Source of the DNA: Planktothricoides sp. SR001
GTDB taxonomy: Bacteria > Cyanobacteriota > Cyanobacteriia > Cyanobacteriales > Laspinemataceae
DNA length: 64,000 bases
Reading direction: 5' to 3'
Assembly: GCF_001276715.1 (NCBI RefSeq)
Contig: NZ_LIUQ01000035.1
Span: 1 to 64,000 of the forward strand
The notes under the pieces were generated by a model. It searched no databases. It was not told where the DNA came from and worked only from the letters and a program-made list of their open reading frames with translations. Positions 5,355 to 63,762 of this stretch are shown piece by piece. Position 1 is the stretch's first letter; each line of letters starts with the position of its first letter. The position numbers and the translations under genes are program-made.

Positions 5355-7928
5355 ATGAATTACTCCAATTTATTCAGCGGATTTCTGGTAATCTTGCTCT
5401 ATGTTATTTCCCCTAGGCCGCTATTAGCCCAGATTGTTTCCGATCGCAGCTTACCGAGTCAGTCCGTTGTCAATTCTCAAGGATCAGTGCAACAAATTAC
5501 CGGCGGAACTACCGCAGGCAGCAACTTATTCCACAGTTTTGAACAGTTTAATCTGCTCAACGGAGAAACGGCTTATTTCGACAATGCCATCACCGTTAAA
5601 AATATTATTACGCGGGTGACAGGCGGGCAAATTTCTCGGATTGATGGGCTGATTCAAGCTAATGGTTTGGCTAATTTATTTCTAATTAATCCCAATGGCA
5701 TTGTTTTCGGTGCCAATGCCAAGCTGAATTTGGGTGGATCGTTTATCGCCAGTACCGCAGATAGTATCAAACTAGCCGATGGTAGCTTTTTTAGTGCCAC
5801 CGAACGAAATGCCCCACCGCTATTAACAATTAATGTACCCATTGGGTTGCAATTCGGGACAAATACTGGGCAAATTCGGGTCGAAGGAACGGGACATAGT
5901 TTGAATTCTAATAATGAATTAGGTCTAGGATTTACCCCGGTGACAGGATTTGCTGAAAGTCCTCCTGGTTTGCAGATTAAACCGGGCAATACCCTGGCCT
6001 TAGTTGGCAGTAATTTAAGATTTAATGGCGGAATTTTAACCGCTCCCGGAGGACATATTTTTTTAGGCAGTGTCGGTTCAGGGTTTGTGAGTCTGAATCC
6101 CACTGATTATGGTTGGAAACTGGACTATGCAGCCGGAGCAAATTTCGGGTTAATTCAGTTATTATCTGAGGCTTTAGTTGATGCCAGTGGCGATAGTGGC
6201 GGGTCCATCTATGTCCAAGGGCAAAGATTAGAAATACGTGATGGTTCAGGGATAATTATCCAAAATCAGGGCAGCAAAGCAGCGGGCAATATTACAGTGA
6301 ATGCCGTTGAGTCTGTGCAGATTGTCGGCGTAAATGTTGCGGGTAATTTTCCCAGTACGATTAAGAATCAAACGGTGGGGGAAGGTGCGGGGGGAGATAT
6401 TAATATTTCCACCCAGCAGTTGATGGCTGAAAGTGCTCGAGATGCGATCGCGACTTCCACCTCTAGTGCGGCGCCAGGTGGTAATATTAATATTGTGGCT
6501 ACGGATGCCATAAAATTAATCGACGGCAGTGGCATTTACGCCATCAGCCTCAGTACCGGAAATGGCGGTAATGTCAATTTATCTACGGGACATTTAACGG
6601 CAATAAATGGCAGCTTTGTTTCTTCCTTGGCCGATAGTACGGGACACGCCGGAAATGCGATCGTTAATGCTACTGAATCGATAGAATTAAGTGGCATCTT
6701 GTTCGACCCAATAAGACCGGACACAAATATTAGACCCAGTAATTTGAGTTCTACATCTTTTAATTCAGGAAATGCCGGAACTTTAATCATCAATACAGCC
6801 CGATTAATTTTAAGGGACTCTGGCAGAGTTTCTGCTTCCGCTTTTTCCAGTGGCAATGCGGGAAATTTAATCATTAATGCATCGGAATCCATCGAGGTGA
6901 CAGGTCAATTACCCAAAAGCCGACCGAGTTTAATTTCTTCCGCTAGTTTTGTCAGTTTAGAAGATAAACAAGCAGGAACAACGGTGGCGGGAAATGCGGG
7001 GTCGATTATGATTAATACCCCCAGATTAATTGTCCGCGATCGCGGATTGGTCAATGCCACCAATGGTGGCGCGGGAAATCCCGGTCAAATTCTGATAAAT
7101 GCTGACCAAATTTTAGTCAGTAACCAAGGAGCAATTACCGCCGTAGCCACATCTGGGTCTGGGGCAACTATTGCCCTGAATGCGCGGAATATTCAACTGG
7201 ATCGAGGCAGCATTAATGCGTCCACTTCTGAGTCTGGAGAAGGGGGTAATATCCGGTTAAATATTGGGGAAGATTTAATTCTGCGAAATGATAGTTTCAT
7301 TTCCACCCAGTCGGGAACTGAAGCCCCAGGAGGTGGCAATGGCGGAAATATTACCATCCAAAGTCAAATATTAGGCGCCTTAGATAATAGCTATATTAAT
7401 GCCAATGCCTTCGCGGGCAATGGGGGAAATATCCAAATCACCACTCAGGGCATATTTTTACCGACTAATAGGACAATTACTGCTAGTTCTGAACGGGGAA
7501 TCGATGGTATCATCGAAATTAATACTCCAGAAAGTAGTCTAACTTCTGGGTTACTGGTTTTATCTCAAAACCCGATTAATATTGCCGATTTAATTCGCAA
7601 TGGCTGTACAGATTATCAGGGGAGTTATTTTGTGATTGCCGGACCGGGTGGTTTACCGAATCCCACCCAAGCGTTAGAAAGTCAGCAAGTTTGGCAAGAT
7701 TTTCGATTGTTATCTAGCCAAGAAATTTCCGAAATAACCGAAATAGAAAATTATCGTTTACGGCAAATTTTACCATTAATTGAGTCAAAATTTACCCAAT
7801 TTTTAGAGGCAACAAACTGGCGGATAAATCAAAAAAATAACATTGAATTAGTGGCAGAAATTCCTAGTTTTAGCCCTAATTTAATGGTAGGATATGGTTG
7901 TGCTGCCATACAGCGCTTTTCAGATTAA
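5355..7928 (+). CDS. Two-partner-secretion exoprotein with filamentous-hemagglutinin N-terminal domain
   Basis: 857 residues. A signal peptide (residues 1-25, hydrophobic, ending PLLAQ) leads into a TPS domain, roughly 26-150, with the typical QGSVQQITGGTTAGSNLFHS, NIITRVTGG and LINPNGIVFGANAKLNLGG blocks. The remainder is Gly/Asn/Ser-rich repeats (GGNI, NTPRLIVRDRG), as expected of a right-handed beta-helix, ending in a region with two Cys (CTDYQ, GYGCAA) typical of cyanobacterial homologues. Such proteins are exported across the outer membrane by a TpsB/ShlB transporter, and none is in this window. Linked genes downstream (CHAT, DUF928, CHASE2 kinase) suggest a regulated surface or secreted adhesin-like function, which is inference. 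Confidence 0.88.
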   Translation: MNYSNLFSGFLVILLYVISPRPLLAQIVSDRSLPSQSVVNSQGSVQQITGGTTAGSNLFHSFEQFNLLNGETAYFDNAITVKNIITRVTGGQISRIDGLIQANGLANLFLINPNGIVFGANAKLNLGGSFIASTADSIKLADGSFFSATERNAPPLLTINVPIGLQFGTNTGQIRVEGTGHSLNSNNELGLGFTPVTGFAESPPGLQIKPGNTLALVGSNLRFNGGILTAPGGHIFLGSVGSGFVSLNPTDYGWKLDYAAGANFGLIQLLSEALVDASGDSGGSIYVQGQRLEIRDGSGIIIQNQGSKAAGNITVNAVESVQIVGVNVAGNFPSTIKNQTVGEGAGGDINISTQQLMAESARDAIATSTSSAAPGGNINIVATDAIKLIDGSGIYAISLSTGNGGNVNLSTGHLTAINGSFVSSLADSTGHAGNAIVNATESIELSGILFDPIRPDTNIRPSNLSSTSFNSGNAGTLIINTARLILRDSGRVSASAFSSGNAGNLIINASESIEVTGQLPKSRPSLISSASFVSLEDKQAGTTVAGNAGSIMINTPRLIVRDRGLVNATNGGAGNPGQILINADQILVSNQGAITAVATSGSGATIALNARNIQLDRGSINASTSESGEGGNIRLNIGEDLILRNDSFISTQSGTEAPGGGNGGNITIQSQILGALDNSYINANAFAGNGGNIQITTQGIFLPTNRTITASSERGIDGIIEINTPESSLTSGLLVLSQNPINIADLIRNGCTDYQGSYFVIAGPGGLPNPTQALESQQVWQDFRLLSSQEISEITEIENYRLRQILPLIESKFTQFLEATNWRINQKNNIELVAEIPSFSPNLMVGYGCAAIQRFSD

Positions 7929-7946
7929 TAAACCACAAATTTTCTT

Positions 7947-8016
7947 AGGGGCGAAGCATTCCGGGAGGAAATTCCTGGTTTTCCGCCAAAAATATCTGCG
8001 GTCATGCTTCGCCCCT
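7947..8016. repeat. Dispersed inverted repeat, GGGGCGAAGCA family (copy 2)
   Basis: Terminal AGGGGCGAAGCAT (7947-7959) and its inverse ATGCTTCGCCCCT (8004-8016) flank a roughly 44-base interior unlike that of copy 1. It is preceded by AAACCACAAAT, a word also found beside the 19.3-19.5 kb copy, so the mobile unit may be longer than the palindrome. It lies between the exoprotein and CHAT genes. Confidence 0.8.
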
Positions 8017-8066
8017 ACAGAAATGGGATGATCTAATTTATCGAGGATGTTATAAGCATAAAAAAC

Positions 8067-10700
8067 ATGAAAAAACAAGTTAAATTTTTGATAACTCTGG
8101 CAGTTGTGACGTTTTTATTAGTGCTGCAAATGTCTCCCGGAGTCGCGAAAATTACGGCGGATCATTTTCGGTTTGAAAAGTGGGCTGATGTGGATGCAAA
8201 AATTTCTTTCTTTAGACTTGAGGAAGAGGCGATCGCCTTTAATGAAACTACCGATGTCACTTTAACTTTATTTGAAGAGGGAAAAAGTTTATTTGCCCAG
8301 GAAAATTATGCAGCGGCTGCCCAGATTTGGCAAAGAGTGGCTGACCAGCCTGAACAGGAAAATTTCCCAGCCCAAAAAGCCCTAGCTTTAACTTATGTTG
8401 CTTTAGCTTATCAAAAATTAGAGCAGTGGCTTGAGGCGAAACAAGCAATTGATCAAAGTTTAGCTATTTTCGCCAGATTAGAGTTATCATCTCAGGCAGA
8501 ACAAGTGATCGAAGCAATATTGGCTCAAGCTTTGAATACCGCTGGGTCAGTAGAGTTAAAATTAGGTCACATTGAAGCAGCTTTAGAAAATTGGGAAAAA
8601 GCCACGATCGCCTATACAGAAATTGGGGATACTATTGGCAAGTTAGGCAGCCAAATGAATCAGGCGATCGCCCTGCAAGGTTTGGGGATGTATCCGCGAT
8701 CGCAAACTATCTTAAAAGAAGTATTGACCCAGTTAGAAGCTGAACCTAATTCTCTGCTCAAAGTCAGCAGCTTACATCAGCTTGGCATCACTCTAAGTCT
8801 TACGGGAAAACTAACAGAATCTAGAGACATTTTAGAACAAAATTTAAGTTTAAGTAAAAATTTAAACGCTCCACAAATTACCAGTGCAATTTTGCTGAGT
8901 TTAGGCAATATTTATGAAAAATTAAAGGATAGCCAAGCGGCAGCTTTGTCTTATCAGCAAGCCGAAGAAATTGCCCCGACGATAACTCAAAAATTACAGG
9001 CTAATCTGAATTACCTGAATCTGCTGCGGGCTGAAGATAGTCCCTCAAAATTCCAAAAATTATATGCAACAATTAAGCAAGACTTAAATAAATTAACCTT
9101 AAGTAATAGTTCCGTAGAAATTAGAATCAACTTGGCAGATATTTTACTAAAAATTCCAGCAAATAATACGATAATTTTTCCCAGAGAAATCGCCGAAATA
9201 TTAACCCCTGCGATCCAAGGGGCTAGAACCTTAAGAACCCCCAAGATTGAATCTTATAGTTTAGGAACTTTAGGTAAATTATATGAACAAAATCAACAAT
9301 GGCAAGCAGCGGAAAAAATTACGGAAGAAGCCTTATGGATTGCCCAAAAAATTCAGGCATTAGATTTAATCGCTCGTTGGCAATGGCAATTTGGACGAAT
9401 ATTAACCAATCAAAGCCGAAAACATGAGGCAATTTCTGCTTATACCCAAGCGGTGAATAGCTTACAAAGGTTACGGAATGATTTTGTGAATATTGACCGA
9501 AATGTGCAATTTTCTTTTACGGAAACCGTAGAGCCAGTGTATCGGGAATTGGTGAGACTTTTGGTGCAAGAACCCAACAATCAAGCCAACCTTCAGCAAG
9601 CGAGACAAGTAATTGAATCTTTGCAGTTGGCAGAATTAGATAACTTTTTTCGCGAGGCTTGTTTAGCAGCCCAGCCGATCAAAATTGAGCAAATAGATTC
9701 CACTGCTGCGGTAATTTATCCGATTATTTTGGCCGATCGCCTGTCGGTGATTTTGGCGCGACCTGGTGCAGATTTAACTTACTATGAAACCCAATTACCA
9801 GAAAAAGAGATCCTAGGGCGACTGGAGCAGTTTCAACTATACTTAAATCCCGCTTTTTTTGATAGCGATCGCCTCCAAGTCTCCCAAACCCTGTATGATT
9901 GGCTAATTCGACCCACTGAACCGCAGTTAGCCGCCAGCAATATTCAAACTTTAGTCTTTGTTTTAGATGGGGCTTTGCGGAATTTGGCAATGGCTGCCCT
10001 TTACGACGGGCAACAATATTTAATTGAAAAATATAGTATCGCTCTCGCTCCCGGATTAGAATTATTAAATGTGGAGTCTTTGACTAAAGAAAAATTAGGG
10101 GTTTTGACCGCAGGACTCAGCGAAGCGCGAGGGCATTTTTCTGCTTTGCCCGCTGTAGAAACCGAACTCAGAGAAATTGCTCAAATCTTCAAATCCGATC
10201 TATTGTTAAATCAAAAGTTTACCAATGCCAATTTAACTGCGAAAATCAATTCTGCGAATCTTCCCGTGGTTCATATTGCCACCCACGGTCAATTTAGTTC
10301 CGACGTGGAAAATACATTTATTTTGACTTGGGATGGCAAAATCAACGTGCAGGAGTTTAACAGCATTCTGCGATCGCGAGAGCAAAAATTTAGTCATCCC
10401 CTGGAATTGCTGGTGCTGAGTGCTTGCCAAACCGCCACAGGCGATCGCCGTGCAGCCTTGGGTTTAGCAGGGTTTGCGGTGCGGTCTGGGGTGCGTACCA
10501 CCTTGGGCAGCTTGTGGCAAGTGAGCGATCGTTCCTCTGCGGACTTAATGATTCGGTTTTACCAAGAACTTGCGGGGGGGCAGCCAGCCACCTCAAAAGC
10601 CAAAGCCTTACAAAAGGCTCAGTTAGCCTTGCTGAAAAATCCCCAGTCCCAACATCCCTTTTATTGGGCTCCCTTTGTATTACTGGGAAATTGGCTATAA
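8067..10700 (+). CDS. Exported TPR-CHAT domain protein (caspase-like peptidase fold)
   Basis: 877 residues. The order is an N-terminal signal or anchor helix (residues 7-25), TPR-type helical repeats from about 65 to 470 (LFAQENYAAAAQIWQRVAD and similar), a connecting segment, and a C-terminal CHAT domain from about 600 to 877. CHAT is a clan CD (caspase/separase-like) peptidase fold. The likely dyad is His near residue 740 in HIATHGQF and Cys near 787 in LSACQTATGD, and both are present. LGLAGFAVRSGVRTTLGSLW and the terminal HPFYWAPFVLLGNW are characteristic. The gene sits between a TPS exoprotein and a DUF928 gene. Proteolytic processing of the exoprotein or another secreted partner is plausible but unproven. 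Confidence 0.88.
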   Translation: MKKQVKFLITLAVVTFLLVLQMSPGVAKITADHFRFEKWADVDAKISFFRLEEEAIAFNETTDVTLTLFEEGKSLFAQENYAAAAQIWQRVADQPEQENFPAQKALALTYVALAYQKLEQWLEAKQAIDQSLAIFARLELSSQAEQVIEAILAQALNTAGSVELKLGHIEAALENWEKATIAYTEIGDTIGKLGSQMNQAIALQGLGMYPRSQTILKEVLTQLEAEPNSLLKVSSLHQLGITLSLTGKLTESRDILEQNLSLSKNLNAPQITSAILLSLGNIYEKLKDSQAAALSYQQAEEIAPTITQKLQANLNYLNLLRAEDSPSKFQKLYATIKQDLNKLTLSNSSVEIRINLADILLKIPANNTIIFPREIAEILTPAIQGARTLRTPKIESYSLGTLGKLYEQNQQWQAAEKITEEALWIAQKIQALDLIARWQWQFGRILTNQSRKHEAISAYTQAVNSLQRLRNDFVNIDRNVQFSFTETVEPVYRELVRLLVQEPNNQANLQQARQVIESLQLAELDNFFREACLAAQPIKIEQIDSTAAVIYPIILADRLSVILARPGADLTYYETQLPEKEILGRLEQFQLYLNPAFFDSDRLQVSQTLYDWLIRPTEPQLAASNIQTLVFVLDGALRNLAMAALYDGQQYLIEKYSIALAPGLELLNVESLTKEKLGVLTAGLSEARGHFSALPAVETELREIAQIFKSDLLLNQKFTNANLTAKINSANLPVVHIATHGQFSSDVENTFILTWDGKINVQEFNSILRSREQKFSHPLELLVLSACQTATGDRRAALGLAGFAVRSGVRTTLGSLWQVSDRSSADLMIRFYQELAGGQPATSKAKALQKAQLALLKNPQSQHPFYWAPFVLLGNWL

Positions 10701-10919
10701 AATAGAGTCATCAAAATCATTACGCGTTTATGACTTTTACGCCTTATGGCGGATGACAAAGTTAGGTCGTTCAGAGGATATTTTATCTATCCCTGATGCT
10801 TCTATCCCATCGATCGATCAGAGTGGCGGCTCTCAAGTCAAGGGTTTCAAGCACTTGATCTCGATCGCCAGTCACTTAGCCTAGTCTATAACCGATTTAT
10901 CGAAATCAGGATTCAATCT

Positions 10920-11738
10920 ATGTATTTTTTGATGCCTAAAACTTTCAAAACTCTTCTGGCGCTGCTTTCTTGGGGAATGGTAATGGCATTTTCCTTGCCC
11001 GCATCAGCCCAAACAAAAAGCCACCTGGATTTACCAGCGGAAACGGCTTCAAATGAACAATTTTTGTCAGTCATTTTTGAACCCCCCACCGATGATAGAG
11101 CCGACGATTCCAGGGGTGGCGCTTCGAGGACGGCGGTTAAATGTCGGGACGATATTGCATCCGCAACGCTTCCCGAACAAATCCGTGAAATTCCCTTAAC
11201 TGCTTTGATGCCGGAAAATAATCGCGGGTTAACAATCGCCTCTCATCCCAGTTTTTTTGTCTATATTCCCACCACTTCCGCTCGGCAAATTTATTTTAGT
11301 TTAAAAGACGCAAATAATCGCGGAATTTATCAGGCAACGTTGCCCATTTCCGGGAATGCAGGAGTGGTGCAAATCTCACTACCCCAAGAGCAAAATCCTT
11401 TAGAAATTGGTCAAACTTATCAGTGGTCAGTGGGGTTAATGTGTCAGCGTACTCAAACAGATATGCCTTGGGTCACAGGTAAAATAGAACGAATTCAACT
11501 AGAGGCAAATCTGGCCAGTCAGCTATCGCCCACTCCGAGTCTGCAACAGGCGGTATTGTATGGTCAATCGGGACTTTGGTACGATCTTTTAACCACCCTG
11601 TTTCAACTGAATAAATCAGCCGGTTTGGATAATTTATCCGCCACTGACTCAAATTTATTGAATCAGAATTGGAGCAATTTATTAGGCTCTGTGGGACTGA
11701 GTGCGATCGCCCATGAAACCTTGTTAGAGCAACCCTAA
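10920..11738 (+). CDS. DUF928 family exported protein
   Basis: 272 residues with a signal peptide (hydrophobic to about residue 31, SLPASAQ). The body matches what I recall of DUF928: a short basic Gly/Ser motif (DSRGGASRTAVKC), LTALMPENN, HPSFFVYIPTTSARQIYFSL, and a Cys in VGLMC. The protein is of unknown biochemical function and is often encoded beside CHAT and CHASE2 genes in cyanobacteria. A copy of the GATATTGCATCCGCAACG repeat (11151-11170) lies within the coding sequence and encodes DIASATL in frame, a likely repeat-derived insertion. It ends 44 bp before the kinase gene. Confidence 0.75.
   Translation: MYFLMPKTFKTLLALLSWGMVMAFSLPASAQTKSHLDLPAETASNEQFLSVIFEPPTDDRADDSRGGASRTAVKCRDDIASATLPEQIREIPLTALMPENNRGLTIASHPSFFVYIPTTSARQIYFSLKDANNRGIYQATLPISGNAGVVQISLPQEQNPLEIGQTYQWSVGLMCQRTQTDMPWVTGKIERIQLEANLASQLSPTPSLQQAVLYGQSGLWYDLLTTLFQLNKSAGLDNLSATDSNLLNQNWSNLLGSVGLSAIAHETLLEQP
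11151..11170. repeat. GATATTGCATCCGCAACG repeat inside the DUF928 gene
   Basis: The core is identical to the tandem copies at 25.7 kb. It is contained in frame in the DUF928 coding sequence, just after the conserved Cys (VKCRDD), so the repeat has been accommodated as protein sequence. Where the insertion ends is not certain without homologues. Confidence 0.65.
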
Positions 11739-11740
11739 TC

Positions 11741-11782
11741 TGACAACAACCAACAACCAACAACCAACAACCAACAACAAAA
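11741..11782. repeat. CAACCAA heptamer tract before the CHASE2 kinase gene
   Basis: Short tandem AACAACC/CAACCAA units fill the DUF928 to kinase spacer, as in the heptameric short tandem repeats known from cyanobacteria. The GTG start of the kinase follows directly, and no clear Shine-Dalgarno sequence is visible. Similar tracts occur at 52.1-52.3 and 63.5 kb. Confidence 0.75.
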
Positions 11783-14700
11783 GTGAATTGGCTACTGTCA
11801 AAAATCAACAAAATTACCCCGCAGTGGCGGAGTATTTTATTAATTGCCCCTACCGTAACTTTTTGCGTGATTTGCCTCAAATATACCGGATCTTTGCAAC
11901 TCTTAGAATGGGCAATTTTAGATCAATTTTTTAATTGGCGGCCTGCGGAAAAAGTGGACGATCGCCTCTTAATTGTCACCGTAGATGAACAAGATATTGC
12001 CAGCGTCGGTCAATGGCCTTTATCCGATGCTATTTTAGCAGAAGTGATTCAGACTATCAATCGACATAACCCAGCGGGAATTGGCTTACTGTTTTATCGA
12101 GATTTGCCAGTAGAACCGGGGCATCAAACCTTAGCCCAAGTGATGCGATCGACCCCCAATTTAATCGGGGTGGAAAAAGTGATTGGTGAGCCAGTTCCCG
12201 CTCCTCCGAGTTTAGACCGGATCGGTCAAGTAGGCATCGTTGATTTATTATTAGATGCGGATAGCAAAGTGCGGCGGGTGCTGCTATCTTATCACAACTC
12301 CCAAGGCCAACTACAATTAAGTATTGGCGCTCAATTAGCCATCAACTATCTAAAAACTCACGGCATTACCCCCCAAGTAATTAAAAATAAAAATCAACCA
12401 GATCGGATTCAATTAGGTAAAGCGATTTTAGAACCATTTACTGGCTATAATGGCGGCTATGTGCGAGCCAATACTGCGGGGTATCAAATCTTATTAAACT
12501 ATCGCGGTGGCGATCAAATTTTTGAAAAAATTTCCCTGACCCAACTGTTAAATCCCGAATTTAATTCAGAATTAAAAGCCGAAAAAATATCCGGACGCAT
12601 TGTGTTAATTGGTTCCACCGCCACCAGTTTAAATGAGTTATTTTACACCCCCTACAGTAGCGAGTTAACGACAATCCCTAAAGCCACTCCTGGGGTGATG
12701 ATTCATGGGAATGCGATCAGTCATCTTTTGAGTGCCGCCATTGAGGGGCGACCAACCATTAAGTCTTGGTCAGAATTTACGGAATTTTTTTGGATCATTG
12801 CTTGGTCATTTATCTGGGCGATCGCCAGTTCATGGGCATTAAATCGGGAAAAATATCCCCATAAGCTGATGCTGCAATTGCTGAAACTTACCCTGAACAT
12901 TAGTCTAGGTAATTGTTTGTTATTTAGTATCACTTATTTAGCCTTTATACAAGGCTGGTGGCTGCCGGTGATTCCTGCCGCGATCGCCTTAACCACCAGC
13001 ACCATTAGCCTAAAAATTTATCAATCAATTCAGGTAGCACGCGATAGTGAAAAGCAGCTAATTCAATCCTTACAATGCTTACAAATTGGTGTTTTTTTAT
13101 ATACAAAAAATCACGAAATTATGTATATTAATAAAACAGCAAAAAAGCTGATTCAATCTCCCCCTGAAAATCGCATTTGTCCGGAAGAAATGATCACCTT
13201 TTATCAACTCTATGTCGCCGGAACTGACGAGCCATATCCTTGGGAAAATCTCCCAGTAATTCGAGCGTTAAAGGGCGAAAGCATTAAAGTTGATGATATT
13301 GAAATGCGTCACCCAGACCAAAAATTACTCTTAGAAGTCCAAGGTCAGCCAATCTTGGACAACCAAGGCAATATCCTTTATGCCTTGGTGACTTTTCAAG
13401 AAATTACTCAACGCAAACAAGCGGAAAAAATCTTAGCCGATTATAATCGCACTTTAGAAATCCAAGTAGCCGAAAGAACGGCAGCTTTAAAAGAAAGTGA
13501 CCAACGATTTAGACAGGCTTTTGAATATTCCGCGATCGGGATTTGTCTGCTGTCACCAGCGGGGCAGTTTTTACAAGTCAATCAGGCTTTATGTCAGATG
13601 ATGGGCTACTCTGCCGATGAGTTGCTGCAAAAACATTCTTACGATATCACCCATCCTGAAGACATCGAAGACAACTTCAGATATTTGCAACAACTCTTAT
13701 CGGGAAAAGAAGATGCTTTTTACCGAGAAAAAAGGTTTATTCATCAAAATGGTTCAATCATTTATGGCTTAGTTAGCGTCTCTTTGGTGCAAGATAAAAA
13801 TAACCAACCGCTGTATTTAATCGGTCAAGTGCAAAATATTACGGAACGGAAAAAAGCAGAAATTGCCCTCAGACAGCATGAAGCCCAGATGAATGCGATA
13901 GTCACCAATACCTCCGACGGTTTATTAATTTTAAATCACCAAGGAAAAATTAGCTTTGCTAATCCAGCGGCTGGGCAAATCTTCAATCAACCAGTAGAGG
14001 AACTAATTAACTCAGAATTTGGCATTCCTCAAGACAAAACCTTTGAGATTTATTTAATGGGAGAGCCTTGTCAAACTAAAACCATCGAGATGAAAATTGG
14101 CGAATATCAATCCCAAGGAAAATCCGCTTATATTGTCTCCTTAAGAGATATTAGCGATCGCAAGCAGGCGGAACTAGAGTTACAAAAAGCCAAAGAAGCT
14201 GCTGAAGTTGCCAACCGAGCCAAAAGTGCATTTTTAGCCAAGATGACCCACGAATTCCGCACCCCTTTACACGCTATTTTAGGTTTTAGCCGAATTATTC
14301 AGCGGGATGGGTCTGTGTCACCAGTGCATCAAGAATATTTAACCATTATCGGTCGCAGTGGCCAACATTTGCTGGAACTGATTAATGATGTATTGGATAT
14401 GTCGAAAATTGAAGCAGGGCAAGTCCAATTAAATGAACATCCGGTAAGCTTAAGTCAGCTATTAGTCTCTGTCCAGGAAATGATGCAGATTAAAGCTCGA
14501 TGCAAAAATTTACCGCTGATTTTTGACCGGGATGCTCAGGTGCCGGATTTGGTGAAAACCGACGAACAAAAATTACGTCAAGTTTTGATTAATCTGGTAG
14601 GAAATGCGATTAAGTTTACGGAACAAGGCCAAGTCCTTGTCCGACTGACCCAAATCAGCCCGGAAAATTCGCCCAATCTGCGATTATGCTTTACGGTAGA

Positions 14701-15847
14701 AGATACTGGACAGGGAATTGAACCGGAAGATTTCCCCTCATTGTTTCAACCGTTTGTGCAAACCGCCGCAGGTCGCCATTCTCAAGAAGGTACGGGTTTA
14801 GGGCTGGCCATTTGTCAACAATTTATTGAGTTAATGGGGGGTAAAATCACTGTTATTAGTCGAGGGAAAAAGTTTACCCCTGGATCGGCAATTTTGCCCG
14901 CACCAAACCCCGACCAAGGTGCGCGAAAGTCGGGAGCGACTTTTCAGTTTGAAGTGCAGGTGGCTTTAGTGGAAAGTCTGCCCCTTGGCAACCGACCGTC
15001 CTCCAGCCTCACTTATGGGGCGATCGCCTCAAATCTCACGGCGACAACAACCCTATCGACTTCCCCATCCTGCGATCGCGTCCTAATCGCCGATCCCCTA
15101 GTCGAAAATCATCGAGTTTTGACTAACTCCCTGATTTCCCTAAATTTTCAAGTTCGGGAAGTCACTAATGGCAAAGACCTGATCGAAACCTGGTCGAGTT
15201 GGCAGCCACATTTGATTTTACTCCATCAGCAAATTGCTCAAATCAATGACTTTGAAGTGATTCGACAGATTCGCCAACGGGAAAAAGATCGGCTGCCAGA
15301 GTTCAACTTTGATCCTCCAACATTTATGATGGTATTAATCACCAGTGAATCTAAAGAAGAGCGATCGGCTTTATTTTCCGCTGGTGCGAATCACTGTATT
15401 CACCAATCCTCTCCCACAGAAATCATTTTGCAGCAAATCGGCAAATCTCTCGGAGTCCACGATCTGTATTACACTACTCAGCCCCCTGTAAAATTTTCAC
15501 CGTTTGAGAGGGATAAAATCTCAGATATTTCTATGGTTTCATCGAGTCTTAGCTGGAAACAACAACCCGGTTCAGAGGCGACTTTATTTCCTAACCAAAC
15601 TTGTGTGGACGAACTCCCCAACAATGGACACCAAAATCTCCTAGAACCGGAAAGCTTGATGGTCATGCCTCATCAATGGATTTCGCAGCTATACCAAGCA
15701 GCCAGAAGCGCAGATCAGCATTGGATTTTTCAACTATTAGAAGAACTATACCCAATCAATCAGCCCTTGGCTCAGGAGTTAGCCAATTTAGTGCATGAAT
15801 TCAAAATAGATCGCCTTATTGAAATTATCAAACCTTTAATTAAATGA
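11783..15847 (+). CDS. CHASE2-PAS hybrid sensor histidine kinase
   Basis: 1354 residues from a GTG start. The order is an N-terminal helix, a periplasmic CHASE2 domain (about 40-320), two or three transmembrane helices (about 330-415), three PAS-like domains (about 430-800), a HisKA domain with H-box KMTHEFRTPLHAILG (His near 823), and HATPase_c with N-box LINLVGNAIKFTE, VEDTGQGI and GTGLGLAICQQF. The receiver-like domain (about 1095-1230) has PHLILLHQQIAQINDFE where the phospho-acceptor Asp should be (DxxMP), so it is degenerate. The C-terminal segment resembles that of the next gene. It is probably a membrane sensor for the adjacent secretion cluster. Its TGA overlaps the next ATG by 4 bp. 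Confidence 0.9.
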   Translation: MNWLLSKINKITPQWRSILLIAPTVTFCVICLKYTGSLQLLEWAILDQFFNWRPAEKVDDRLLIVTVDEQDIASVGQWPLSDAILAEVIQTINRHNPAGIGLLFYRDLPVEPGHQTLAQVMRSTPNLIGVEKVIGEPVPAPPSLDRIGQVGIVDLLLDADSKVRRVLLSYHNSQGQLQLSIGAQLAINYLKTHGITPQVIKNKNQPDRIQLGKAILEPFTGYNGGYVRANTAGYQILLNYRGGDQIFEKISLTQLLNPEFNSELKAEKISGRIVLIGSTATSLNELFYTPYSSELTTIPKATPGVMIHGNAISHLLSAAIEGRPTIKSWSEFTEFFWIIAWSFIWAIASSWALNREKYPHKLMLQLLKLTLNISLGNCLLFSITYLAFIQGWWLPVIPAAIALTTSTISLKIYQSIQVARDSEKQLIQSLQCLQIGVFLYTKNHEIMYINKTAKKLIQSPPENRICPEEMITFYQLYVAGTDEPYPWENLPVIRALKGESIKVDDIEMRHPDQKLLLEVQGQPILDNQGNILYALVTFQEITQRKQAEKILADYNRTLEIQVAERTAALKESDQRFRQAFEYSAIGICLLSPAGQFLQVNQALCQMMGYSADELLQKHSYDITHPEDIEDNFRYLQQLLSGKEDAFYREKRFIHQNGSIIYGLVSVSLVQDKNNQPLYLIGQVQNITERKKAEIALRQHEAQMNAIVTNTSDGLLILNHQGKISFANPAAGQIFNQPVEELINSEFGIPQDKTFEIYLMGEPCQTKTIEMKIGEYQSQGKSAYIVSLRDISDRKQAELELQKAKEAAEVANRAKSAFLAKMTHEFRTPLHAILGFSRIIQRDGSVSPVHQEYLTIIGRSGQHLLELINDVLDMSKIEAGQVQLNEHPVSLSQLLVSVQEMMQIKARCKNLPLIFDRDAQVPDLVKTDEQKLRQVLINLVGNAIKFTEQGQVLVRLTQISPENSPNLRLCFTVEDTGQGIEPEDFPSLFQPFVQTAAGRHSQEGTGLGLAICQQFIELMGGKITVISRGKKFTPGSAILPAPNPDQGARKSGATFQFEVQVALVESLPLGNRPSSSLTYGAIASNLTATTTLSTSPSCDRVLIADPLVENHRVLTNSLISLNFQVREVTNGKDLIETWSSWQPHLILLHQQIAQINDFEVIRQIRQREKDRLPEFNFDPPTFMMVLITSESKEERSALFSAGANHCIHQSSPTEIILQQIGKSLGVHDLYYTTQPPVKFSPFERDKISDISMVSSSLSWKQQPGSEATLFPNQTCVDELPNNGHQNLLEPESLMVMPHQWISQLYQAARSADQHWIFQLLEELYPINQPLAQELANLVHEFKIDRLIEIIKPLIK

Positions 15848-17772
15848 ATTACCATAACTCTCAAACTTTTAAAGCGGATATTTTGGTGGTTGACGATACC
15901 CCAGAAAACTTAAAACTCTTGTCAGCAATTTTGACGGAGGCGGGGTATAAAGTTAGACCTGTAACCAATGGTCAACGGGCTTTAGATGCGGTAGAAATGA
16001 ATCCACCTGACGTGATTTTGCTGGATATTTTAATGCCAGAAATGGATGGATATGAAGTTTGCCGCCGCCTGAAACAATCCCGAAACAGTCGAGATATTCC
16101 CGTAATTTTTTTAACCGCTCTCAACGATCCTGCTTCCCAAGTTAAAGGGTTTGAAGTTGGCGCATTTGACTATATTACTAAGCCATTTGATGAGCAAACT
16201 GTTTTGGCGCGGATTGAAAATCAATTAACCATTCAACGGCAAAAAGCTGAACTGCAAGCGGAGATTGTTTATCGCCAGCAGTTGGAAGCCCAATTACGCT
16301 ATGCCAAAGATATGGCTGAAGAAGCGAACCGGGCAAAAAGTGTGTTTATTGCCAATATGAGCCACGAACTCAGAACCCCGATGAATGCAATTCTCGGCTT
16401 TGCGGAATTAATGAAAACCGATCCCGCTTTGAGTGCAGATTATCGAGAATATATGGAAATCATTTATGAAAGTGGTCATTATTTACTATCTTTAATTAAT
16501 GGTATATTAGATTTAGCCAAAATTGAATCACAATCAATTAAGGTGATTAAAGAAACATTTGATTTAAACGATCTGCTCGATCACCTGAATGCCATTTTTA
16601 CTTTTAAGGCAAGCCAGCAAAATATTAAATTTTTAATTGAGCGAAATTCTGAGCTTCCTGAAAAAATTGAAACCGATCGGCAAAAACTGCGACAAGTGTT
16701 AATTAATTTGCTGGGAAATGCTTTGAAGTTTACCAAGCAAGGCCAGGTCATTTTACGCTTAACGGTACTAGATTTTGCGGGAACGACTTTGAAGCTGAAG
16801 GGCGGCGATCTAGATCGGCCGCAGCCAACGGAAAATCAACAACCTTTAACCATGCTGTTTGAGGTGATAGATACGGGTCTGGGAATTCCTCCAGAATATT
16901 TGAGTAAAATATTTCAGCCTTTTTTCCAAACTGAAATGGGGCAAAAGATTCCCGGAGGCACCGGGCTGGGTCTATCGATTAGTAAAAAATTTGTAGAAAT
17001 TTTGGAGGGAGAAATAATTGTTCATAGTGTGGTGAATGAAGGGAGTTCTTTTCAATGTTATTTACCCGTAATGATTCCCAAAAATGATCGGATTTTTCAA
17101 GAGTTGTCTAAAACAACATCCCTGAAATATCCGTCAGAAAAGCATCGGATTTTAGTGGTGGATGATGACCCAACCAACCGATTTTTGTTGCTGGAATTTT
17201 TGAACTTATTAGATGTAGAAACGCGAGCGGTAGAAAATGGCATCCAGGCGATCGCCGAATCGATGGTTTGGCAGCCGCATTTGATTTGGATGGATCTACA
17301 AATGCCGAGCATGGATGGATATGAAACCACTAAAAAAATTCGGGATATCCAAACCGACTTATCACCGAAAATTTTGGCGATGACTGCCAATTTGATTGAC
17401 CTAGAAGCATCGACCAAAATTCAGTTACTTTTTGATGATTTAGTGGGCAAACCATTTAATCAAAAAATTGTTTATGATAAAATTTTGGCGCATTTAGGCG
17501 TCGGTTGTATTTGTCAACTTTCTGCCTCGGAAGTTCTGGCATCTGCGGCCACCGAATTCCCGGAGTATCTCAGTAGTAAATCTCTGGAATTTATGCCTAC
17601 TTTATGGTTACAGCAAATTCACCAAGCCGCCTTACAATCTAGTCCGTCTCAGGTGATGAAACTCTTAGAAGACATTCCGCCTTCCCATGAGCAAGTCCGA
17701 GAGCGTCTCGTGGGTTTTGTCCAAAATTCTCAGTTCGCTCAAATTGTTGAATTGACCCTGTCCCCGAATTAA
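15844..17772 (+). CDS. REC-HisKA-HATPase-REC hybrid histidine kinase
   Basis: 642 residues, soluble. The N-terminal receiver (about 10-125) has the intact acidic pocket (VVDDT) and acceptor LLDILMPEMDGYEV. HisKA has MSHELRTPMNAILGF (His near 173), and HATPase_c has LINLLGNALKFTKQG, VIDTGLGIPPEYL and GGTGLGLSISKKF. A second receiver (about 435-560) has VVDDDPTN and WMDLQMPSMDGYE. All phosphotransfer residues are present, in contrast to the upstream partner. It overlaps that gene by ATGA and shares its C-terminal helical tail type, so the two probably form a translationally coupled relay. No DNA-binding output domain is encoded here. Confidence 0.92.
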   Translation: MNYHNSQTFKADILVVDDTPENLKLLSAILTEAGYKVRPVTNGQRALDAVEMNPPDVILLDILMPEMDGYEVCRRLKQSRNSRDIPVIFLTALNDPASQVKGFEVGAFDYITKPFDEQTVLARIENQLTIQRQKAELQAEIVYRQQLEAQLRYAKDMAEEANRAKSVFIANMSHELRTPMNAILGFAELMKTDPALSADYREYMEIIYESGHYLLSLINGILDLAKIESQSIKVIKETFDLNDLLDHLNAIFTFKASQQNIKFLIERNSELPEKIETDRQKLRQVLINLLGNALKFTKQGQVILRLTVLDFAGTTLKLKGGDLDRPQPTENQQPLTMLFEVIDTGLGIPPEYLSKIFQPFFQTEMGQKIPGGTGLGLSISKKFVEILEGEIIVHSVVNEGSSFQCYLPVMIPKNDRIFQELSKTTSLKYPSEKHRILVVDDDPTNRFLLLEFLNLLDVETRAVENGIQAIAESMVWQPHLIWMDLQMPSMDGYETTKKIRDIQTDLSPKILAMTANLIDLEASTKIQLLFDDLVGKPFNQKIVYDKILAHLGVGCICQLSASEVLASAATEFPEYLSSKSLEFMPTLWLQQIHQAALQSSPSQVMKLLEDIPPSHEQVRERLVGFVQNSQFAQIVELTLSPN

Positions 17773-52110: not shown

Positions 52111-52314
52111 TAATTGTTGGTTGTTCTTTGTTCTTTAGTTCTTTGTTGGTTGTTGTTTGGGCAAATTCAACAATCAAAGAATCCCTACCCAACCACCAAC
52201 CACCAACCAACAACAATGAACAATCAACTACCAACAAAAAACAACTAACAACCAAAGAATCCCTACCCAACAACTAACAACCAACAACTAACAACTAACA
52301 ACTAACAACTAATT
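52111..52314. repeat. CAACAACCAAC tracts and AAAGAATCCCTACCC units
   Basis: This is the entire glycosyltransferase to hisIE spacer. It has runs of AACAACCAACA and AACTAACAAC-type words and two copies of the 15-bp AAAGAATCCCTACCC unit (52176-52190 and 52254-52268). That unit is identical to the five tandem copies at 63.4 kb. Non-coding. Confidence 0.8.
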
Positions 52315-63023: not shown

Positions 63024-63762
63024 TAAATTTTACCGGAAACCCGACCTCGCCCACCATTTTTTAATAAAACTTGATAATTTCTGGATAATTCACTTAATCA
63101 ATCCTTTAGGCAACTTCCCACATTATAACACAATAACACAAATTAAGTCTAAGTGTTTTTCTTCAGATTAAATAAAAATTAACCCTTAAATCAAAACTAA
63201 CCAATCCATTGATTAAATATATGCAGCAATATATTCAGTAATATATGCAACAATCTGACTATTTGACAGGGTAAAATTTATTTTTAAAATAATTTTTTTA
63301 ACAACGTCATTGGCGATCGATAATTACTTGACCCCCCATATCCCTCTTACAAGGGTTTTCCTGTGTTTTTTTTCCTTTGTCCTTGGTTTTAACATTATTT
63401 GCTATTTGTTATTTGTTATTTGTTAACAGATCAAGAATAACAACCAAAGAATCCCTACCCAAAGAATCCCTACCCAAAGAATCCCTACCCAAAGAATCCC
63501 TACCCAAAGAATCCCTACCCAACAACCATCTTGCCCGCTCGCGAAGCCTTTATGGCAACCAACAACCAACAACCAACAAATAACAAATAACAAATAACAA
63601 ATAACAAAAAATTATTAGGATAATGCTGTATAAGCAATAACAAATGCTTAACAAGCATATAAGGATCCTTATATGCTTGTTAACATCAGATTGGTTTGTC
63701 CGCCTGACTGGAAGATAAAATTAGGAAAAGTTATCAAAAACTATTCCCCATGTGATATGCTT
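63024..63762. repeat. Repeat-rich spacer with 5x15-bp AAAGAATCCCTACCC and a 36-bp palindrome
   Basis: This is the longest non-coding stretch (739 bp). Five exact AAAGAATCCCTACCC units fill 63446-63520. A TTATTTGTTATTTGTTA tract lies before them and an AACAAATAACAAATAA tract after. A CGCTCGCGAAGCCTTTATGG piece (63537-63556) resembles a fragment of the in-frame repeat family. A perfect palindrome lies at 63648-63683. No gene was seen. Confidence 0.85.
63648..63683. repeat. Perfect 36-bp palindrome centred on GGATCC
   Basis: TTAACAAGCATATAAGGA and its exact inverse TCCTTATATGCTTGTTAA meet with no loop. No T-run follows on either side, so it is not a typical terminator. Possible uses are a dimeric-protein operator, a cruciform or a resolution site. 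It lies about 80 bp beyond the aroQ stop. Confidence 0.9.

What the first reader, a model, noticed from the sequence alone, without database searches (positions are those of the whole stretch)
5355..17772. Five-gene locus linking TPS exoprotein, CHAT protein, DUF928 protein and two kinases
All five genes read in the same direction, are compactly spaced in the later part, and end with a 4-bp kinase overlap. CHAT is a caspase-like peptidase fold with its His and Cys intact, and it carries a signal or anchor helix, so a regulated extracytoplasmic protease acting on a surface exoprotein is a reasonable model. The DUF928 protein has no known function. I recall that CHAT, DUF928 and CHASE2 genes are often neighbours in cyanobacteria; this is from general knowledge rather than checked here.
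Basis: partly seen in the sequence, partly recalled or inferred. Interest (0 to 1): 0.65.

Follow-up and report, generated by a model that had tools for sequence, protein, structure and literature searches.

The report
Cyanobacterial envelope-signalling gene cassette with caspase-like protease
Five neighbouring genes form one unit of a recurring cyanobacterial cassette that puts a secreted surface protein, a caspase-like protease and a periplasmic helper protein beside a membrane receptor whose inner signalling part is repeatedly exchanged; it suggests how a common receptor family with no known trigger (CHASE2) may be switched on from outside the cell.

Summary
In detail: TPS exoprotein, TPR-CHAT, DUF928, CHASE2 hybrid kinase and a second hybrid kinase lie in one direction at 5355-17772, with a 4-bp kinase overlap. 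An Oscillatoriales genome carries the same five genes in the same order with the same overlap. DNA similarity starts 11 bp before the first ATG and ends inside the last gene, in different surroundings, and all genes are under purifying selection. The association is general. DUF928 is confined to Cyanobacteriia; 36 of 59 DUF928 loci have CHASE2 within 1 kb, and 20 random stretches hold none of the four families. About 20 loci repeat TPS>CHAT>DUF928>CHASE2. DUF928 and CHASE2 co-vary within genomes (p=0.0002). The CHASE2 output is swapped repeatedly (kinase, adenylate cyclase, diguanylate cyclase; N-terminal CHAT, TIR, AAA or Ser/Thr kinase). CHAT is also fused directly to TPS proteins. Where DUF928 is absent, a secreted FecR-domain gene often sits beside CHASE2, and the DUF928 model best matches MtxA, another periplasmic protein encoded next to a CHASE2 cyclase. 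Best reading: a modular envelope receptor system in which DUF928 is the periplasmic partner of CHASE2, with the CHAT protease and exoprotein upstream. 'Protease cuts exoprotein' is possible but unshown.

The parts
5355..7928 (+). TPS-domain (FhaB/TpsA-type) beta-helix exoprotein, 857 aa, signal peptide cut about A25/Q26, NPNG motif
   Evidence: NCBIfam TIGR01901; 87% identical ortholog in L185
8067..10700 (+). exported TPR-CHAT caspase-like peptidase, 877 aa; TPR superhelix about 68-476, CHAT 605-875, dyad H740/C787
   Evidence: 72% ortholog in L185
10920..11738 (+). DUF928 periplasmic protein, 272 aa: signal peptide (cut about A30/Q31), flexible linker about 31-90, Ig/FN3-like sandwich about 100-191, helical tail 196-257
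11115..11129 (+). codons of the conserved linker motif G-G-[AG]-[ST]-R (window G66-G67-A68-S69-R70); candidate cleavage or docking site
   Evidence: motif in 109 of 149 DUF928 linkers, 9.7 expected in shuffled linkers
11783..15847 (+). CHASE2-PAS-PAS-HisKA-HATPase-(degenerate REC) membrane histidine kinase, 1354 aa, GTG start
   Evidence: 72% ortholog in L185
15844..17772 (+). REC-HisKA-HATPase-REC soluble hybrid kinase, 642 aa, 4-bp overlap with the CHASE2 kinase gene
   Evidence: 70% ortholog with the same 4-bp overlap in L185; REC/HK-type gene near cassettes in 23 loci

Best explanation
This is one member of a modular cyanobacterial outside-in signalling cassette. CHASE2 is the membrane receptor; DUF928 is its dedicated periplasmic partner (co-receptor or ligand adaptor), the counterpart of the FecR-domain and MtxA proteins encoded beside CHASE2 genes elsewhere. 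The exported TPR-CHAT protease and the two-partner-secreted exoprotein act upstream, outside the inner membrane: a change at the surface protein, or proteolysis by CHAT, alters DUF928, and CHASE2 passes this to a swappable cytoplasmic output. In this locus the output is a histidine kinase with a degenerate receiver that probably hands phosphate to the overlapping REC-HK-REC kinase. Shown: gene unit, general association, co-variation of DUF928 with CHASE2, intact CHAT dyad, output swapping, TPS-CHAT fusions. Inferred: DUF928-CHASE2 binding, direction of signal flow, CHAT proteolysis and its substrate, relay to the second kinase.
For: Ortholog block with identical order and overlap in different surroundings, dN/dS well below 1 for all five genes. 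DUF928-centred sample: CHASE2 within 1 kb 36/59, CHAT within 9 kb 26/59, TPS 22/59; 0 of 20 random stretches hold any of the four. CHASE2-centred named sample: DUF928 within 1 kb 63/79, CHAT within 6 kb 48/79. Within-genome DUF928-CHASE2 distance correlation 0.68 against permuted mean 0.47, p=0.0002; nearest-partner match 40/47 with 15.2 expected. Output domains need at least 16 changes on the sensor tree. CHASE2 without DUF928 has a FecR-domain secreted protein just upstream in 2 cyanobacterial loci of G036, in S. meliloti cyaK and Phyllobacterium, and two genes upstream in Paraburkholderia. DUF928 model best matches the MtxA C-terminal domain (Z 9.2, next 7.2, whole domain); MtxA has a signal peptide and its gene precedes a CHASE2-cyclase gene (PMC4439547). 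In S. meliloti an outer-membrane protein, NsrA, is genetically required for signalling through the CHASE2 cyclases (PMC7529298, PMC13001267). Campylobacterota CHASE2 cyclases cluster with FecR and TPR genes (PMC9239204).
Against: No physical interaction, cleavage or expression data. CHAT did not show within-genome co-variation with DUF928 or CHASE2 (p 0.54 and 0.45, only 22 pairs). About a third of DUF928 loci have no CHASE2 nearby, and some CHASE2 genes (G022, G014) have neither DUF928 nor FecR adjacent. DUF928 and MtxA show no detectable sequence similarity and Z 9.2 is only moderately above background.
Confidence: 0.68

Rival explanations
1. One reading: the exported CHAT protease processes or sheds the TPS exoprotein, under control of the two kinases; DUF928 is an accessory.
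For: TPS>CHAT adjacency in many loci; TPS and CHAT fused in one protein in this genome (three proteins) and others; CHAT dyad invariant.
Against: DUF928-CHASE2 is the tighter pair; many cassettes lack TPS; fusion makes CHAT a passenger rather than a separate processing enzyme; no cleavage evidence.
Confidence: 0.3
2. CHAT cuts the flexible linker of DUF928 at the conserved G-G-[AG]-[ST]-R motif, releasing or re-shaping DUF928 so that CHASE2 fires: a protease-gated receptor.
For: Motif in 109/149 linkers against 9.7 in shuffled linkers; it sits in a low-confidence (flexible) region of the model; more frequent in DUF928 beside CHASE2 (91/111 v 18/38, p 9e-5). Several proteases of the same clan prefer Arg at P1 (general knowledge).
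Against: Motif is not more frequent beside CHAT (54/71 v 55/78, p 0.47), though CHAT genes in trans are abundant (46 hits in this genome); it could equally be a CHASE2-docking motif.
Confidence: 0.2
3. No joint function: large cyanobacterial genomes hold many copies of these families and some fall together by chance or by shared regulation of surface genes.
For: 46 CHAT hits, 18 DUF928, 15 CHASE2, 18 TPS in this genome.
Against: Own-genome expectation exceeded (DUF928-CHASE2 8 of 13 against 0.33 expected, p 2e-10; DUF928-CHAT 7 of 13 against 0.97, p 1.5e-5); conserved order across families; conserved five-gene block; co-variation.
Confidence: 0.03

Closest known systems
FecR-domain + CHASE2 adenylate cyclase operons (S. 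meliloti cyaK with NsrA; Campylobacterota cluster, PMC9239204, PMC7529298)
   Same: CHASE2 receptor gene beside a secreted partner and TPR genes; an outer-membrane component is required for signalling in S. meliloti (literature); FecR beside CHASE2 seen here in 5 loci
   Different: Cyanobacterial cassettes use DUF928 in place of FecR, add a CHAT protease and a TPS exoprotein, and have many output types
MtxA of Magnetospirillum (PDB 4z29, PMC4439547)
   Same: Exported Ig-like plus helical protein; gene followed by a CHASE2-cyclase gene; best fold match of DUF928
   Different: No sequence similarity detected; different phylum; mtxA deletion had no visible phenotype in the cited paper
CHASE2-DUF928 neighbours in Nostoc punctiforme (PMC5587647)
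   Same: CHASE2 sensor and DUF928 genes in one array; the paper also cites sll1891 (DUF928) as responding to acid stress
   Different: Described there as particular to that species among seven; CHAT and TPS not mentioned in the passage
Metacaspase-CHASE2 fusion of Trichodesmium (PMC3501461) and CHASE2-GGDEF Dgc2 of Leptolyngbya boryana (PMC10581220)
   Same: Caspase-fold or GGDEF domain coupled to CHASE2; the Dgc2 paper states the CHASE2 ligand is unknown
   Different: No DUF928, CHAT or TPS partner considered; here the protease is also a separate exported protein

Membership tests
Two-partner secretion exoprotein (TpsA) | Sec signal peptide and N-terminal TPS domain with NPNG motif | tested here: met
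   Pfam TPS 25-285, E 2e-61; NPNG in the sequence
Two-partner secretion exoprotein (TpsA) | cognate TpsB transporter adjacent | tested here: not met
   No TpsB in the locus; 2 clear and 1 weak TpsB hit elsewhere in the genome. TpsB lies beside or fused to TPS in some related cassettes
CHAT (caspase-HetF-associated with TPRs) peptidase | CHAT domain with His-Cys dyad after TPRs | tested here: met
   Pfam CHAT E 5e-61, TPR_12; H740/C787 invariant in 90/90
CHAT peptidase | proteolytic activity | not testable with these tools
   needs assay; AF2 model of the CHAT part was of low confidence
CHASE2 receptor histidine kinase | N-terminal TM, CHASE2 ectodomain, further TMs, HisKA and HATPase_c | tested here: met
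   TM segments by reading
FecR family | FecR domain (PF04773) | tested here: not met
   DUF928 protein hits only PF06051; analogy of gene position only
MtxA family | sequence similarity to MtxA | tested here: not met
   profile of 14 DUF928 against PDB sequences: no hit at E 10
[quoted passage not shown]
   best match, Z 9.2, rmsd 4.1, 150 residues, whole domain; next 7.2
Type III-E CRISPR TPR-CHAT (Csx29) or other defence CHAT systems | cytoplasmic, linked to defence genes | tested here: not met
   signal peptide present; no meaningful PADLOC hit for TPS, CHAT, DUF928 or the CHASE2 kinase

The most novel reading that the evidence does not exclude
A protease-gated envelope receptor of bacteria: a caspase-like CHAT peptidase, itself exported or carried on a two-partner-secreted surface protein, cuts the conserved Gly-Gly-X-Ser/Thr-Arg linker of DUF928, and cut DUF928 is the ligand of CHASE2, which then drives whichever output (kinase, cAMP, c-di-GMP, TIR, CHAT) is plugged in.
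Probability: 0.13. Interest if true: 0.88.

Novelty: new variant of a known kind. Interest (0 to 1): 0.64.

Why it matters
CHASE2 is a widespread receptor domain whose ligands are described as unknown (PMC10581220). A secreted partner encoded beside it (DUF928 in most cyanobacteria, FecR-domain proteins or MtxA elsewhere) gives a direct, testable candidate for what CHASE2 senses, gives the DUF928 family a probable role, and places caspase-like CHAT proteases, numerous in cyanobacteria, in an envelope signalling pathway. One input module feeding kinase, cAMP, c-di-GMP, TIR or CHAT outputs is also a ready-made natural domain-swap series.

Tried and rejected
A DUF928 alignment was too divergent for pattern scanning, so CHASE2 was used for the named-genome scan; that sample is therefore chosen by likeness to CHASE2. 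AF2 of the TPR-CHAT protein gave a good TPR part but an unusable CHAT part, so no fold search was run on it. Sequence search of DUF928 against PDB found nothing. CHAT co-variation with its cassette could not be shown. Terminator and promoter scans give no clear break or start inside the unit and promoter matches are at chance level. Defence-system reading rejected. Chance association rejected. Paper searches joining DUF928+CHAT, CHAT domain+CHASE2, or CHAT domain+two-partner secretion returned no paper in the held library; subscription papers are not covered.

Full report
WHAT IS THERE. The window is contig C115 of a 7.07 Mb cyanobacterial genome. Five + strand genes run from 5355 to 17772. 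By Pfam they encode a TPS-domain exoprotein, a TPR-CHAT peptidase, a DUF928 protein, a CHASE2-PAS-PAS-HisKA-HATPase kinase and a REC-HisKA-HATPase-REC kinase. Gaps are 138, 219, 44 and -4 bp. The first three proteins begin with readable Sec signal peptides. The CHASE2 kinase carries a C-terminal receiver-like domain whose acceptor Asp is His (LILLH), while both receivers of the second kinase are intact; a relay between the two overlapping genes is therefore likely (inference).

IT IS ONE UNIT. In L185 (Oscillatoriales cyanobacterium S07.Bin090) the same five genes lie in the same order with the same 4-bp overlap, at 87, 72, 69, 72 and 70% protein identity. DNA similarity starts 11 bp before the TPS start and ends at 17499, inside the last gene; neither the upstream urease gene nor the downstream MacB-type gene is shared. 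Nei-Gojobori dN/dS are 0.067/0.273, 0.18/0.60, 0.184/0.524, 0.162/0.691 and 0.195/0.915, so all five are under purifying selection.

THE ASSOCIATION IS GENERAL. This genome alone has 46 CHAT, 18 DUF928, 15 CHASE2 and 18 TPS hits, arranged in further cassettes such as CHAT>DUF928>CHASE2 on C87 and C76, DUF928>TPS>CHAT on C42, CHASE2>DUF928 on C65 and C71. Chance proximity is excluded (8 of 13 DUF928 loci have CHASE2 within 6 kb, 0.33 expected; 7 of 13 have CHAT, 0.97 expected). Across genomes, DUF928 occurs in 17 of 24 Cyanobacteriia (the window's own genome included) and in none of 35 other genomes of the phylum. Of 59 scored DUF928-centred stretches from other genomes, 36 have CHASE2 within 1 kb, 26 CHAT and 22 TPS within 9 kb; 20 random stretches from the same genomes have none. 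Of 79 CHASE2-centred stretches from named species, 63 have DUF928 within 1 kb and 48 CHAT within 6 kb; this sample was picked by CHASE2 similarity. The exact order TPS>CHAT>DUF928>CHASE2 recurs in about 20 loci. TPS is present in 7 of 7 tested DUF928-bearing genomes and 1 of 7 DUF928-free ones of the class; CHASE2 in 7 of 7 and 3 of 7.

WHO PAIRS WITH WHOM. DUF928 and CHASE2 distances correlate within genomes, where species history cannot explain it (r 0.68, permuted mean 0.47, p 0.0002); the cassette with the nearest DUF928 in another genome also has the nearest CHASE2 in 40 of 47 cases, 15.2 expected. The same test does not show CHAT co-variation, with few pairs. On a tree of 137 CHASE2 sensors the kinase, adenylate cyclase and GGDEF outputs need at least 16 changes. 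N-terminal outputs also occur: CHAT, AAA_35 and Ser/Thr kinase and a triple TIR in Kovacikia minuta, divergent from a DUF928 gene. So the input module is constant and the output is exchanged.

CHAT AND TPS. CHAT His and Cys are invariant in 90 of 90 relatives. TPS and CHAT are joined in single proteins three times in this genome (1308, 2317 and 2705 aa) and in several others, which places the CHAT domain on the two-partner secretion route there. TpsB is unlinked in this genome, but is fused to the TPS protein in L161 and L178.

WHAT DUF928 MAY BE. The AF2 model shows a flexible linker, an Ig/FN3-like sandwich and a helical tail. Its best aligned solved structure over the whole domain is the MtxA C-terminal domain (Z 9.2, next 7.2), a moderate match without sequence similarity. 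Independently, MtxA has a signal peptide and its gene is followed by a CHASE2-cyclase gene (PMC4439547). CHASE2-cyclase genes without DUF928 have a FecR-domain secreted protein gene just upstream in both loci of the cyanobacterium G036, in S. meliloti cyaK and in Phyllobacterium; in Paraburkholderia a FecR-domain gene stands two genes upstream of a CHASE2 gene. The literature reports FecR and TPR genes clustered with CHASE2 cyclases in Campylobacterota (PMC9239204) and a genetic need for an outer-membrane protein, NsrA, upstream of the S. meliloti CHASE2 cyclases (PMC7529298, PMC13001267). The simplest joint reading is that CHASE2 receptors work with a secreted partner, and DUF928 is the usual one in cyanobacteria.

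A POSSIBLE SWITCH. The DUF928 linker holds a conserved G-G-[AG]-[ST]-R motif (109 of 149, 9.7 in shuffled linkers), commoner beside CHASE2 (91/111 v 18/38) but not beside CHAT (54/71 v 55/78). It may be a cleavage site for CHAT or a docking site; this is untested.

LIMITS. ORF calls are mechanical; signal peptides were judged by a hydrophobicity rule (random ORFs 28 of 221 positive, DUF928 132 of 149); the samples contain related species; no interaction, cleavage or expression evidence exists. The unit and its generality are shown; the mechanism is inferred.

Noticed in passing
L291:2078-5224 (Kovacikia minuta plasmid pB): A protein with three TIR stretches followed by CHASE2 (1049 aa), divergent from a DUF928 gene: an envelope receptor with a TIR output.
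   Followed up: partly
L149:4109-9577: One open frame holds a glycosyltransferase 2 domain, a TPS domain and CHAT; could be a real fusion or an assembly effect.
   Followed up: no
L161:2797-7122 and L178:1434-5825: TpsA (TPS) and TpsB (POTRA_2 + ShlB) in one protein, followed by a CHAT gene.
   Followed up: partly
L096, L158, L164, L261, L298:3352-4125: A metallo-beta-lactamase (in L298 of Anti-Pycsar Apyc1 type, directly beside a CHASE2-cyclase gene) recurs near CHASE2 genes; possible cyclic-nucleotide turnover enzyme.
   Followed up: partly
window 11743-11777, also 52267-52287 and 63559-63579: Heptamer repeat (CCAACAA)n between DUF928 and CHASE2 genes; a similar repeat stands before the CHASE2 gene in L185.
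   Followed up: partly
window 7947-8016, also 2429, 19492, 44896: Inverted repeat AGGGGCGAAGCAT...ATGCTTCGCCCCT between TPS and CHAT genes, whose arm recurs elsewhere in the window; the shorter TPS-CHAT gap of L185 (65 bp) suggests it is a mobile-type insert.
   Followed up: partly
loci L086, L125, L129, L132, L133, L138, L161, L168, L178, L181: A DUF1822 gene, in most of these loci with a further conserved gene that looks like a sigma factor, lies beside CHASE2 genes (mostly the CHAT-CHASE2 fusion class); plasmid p057_G of Nostoc sp. C057 has an annotated sigma-70 gene and DUF1822 before its CHASE2.
   Followed up: no
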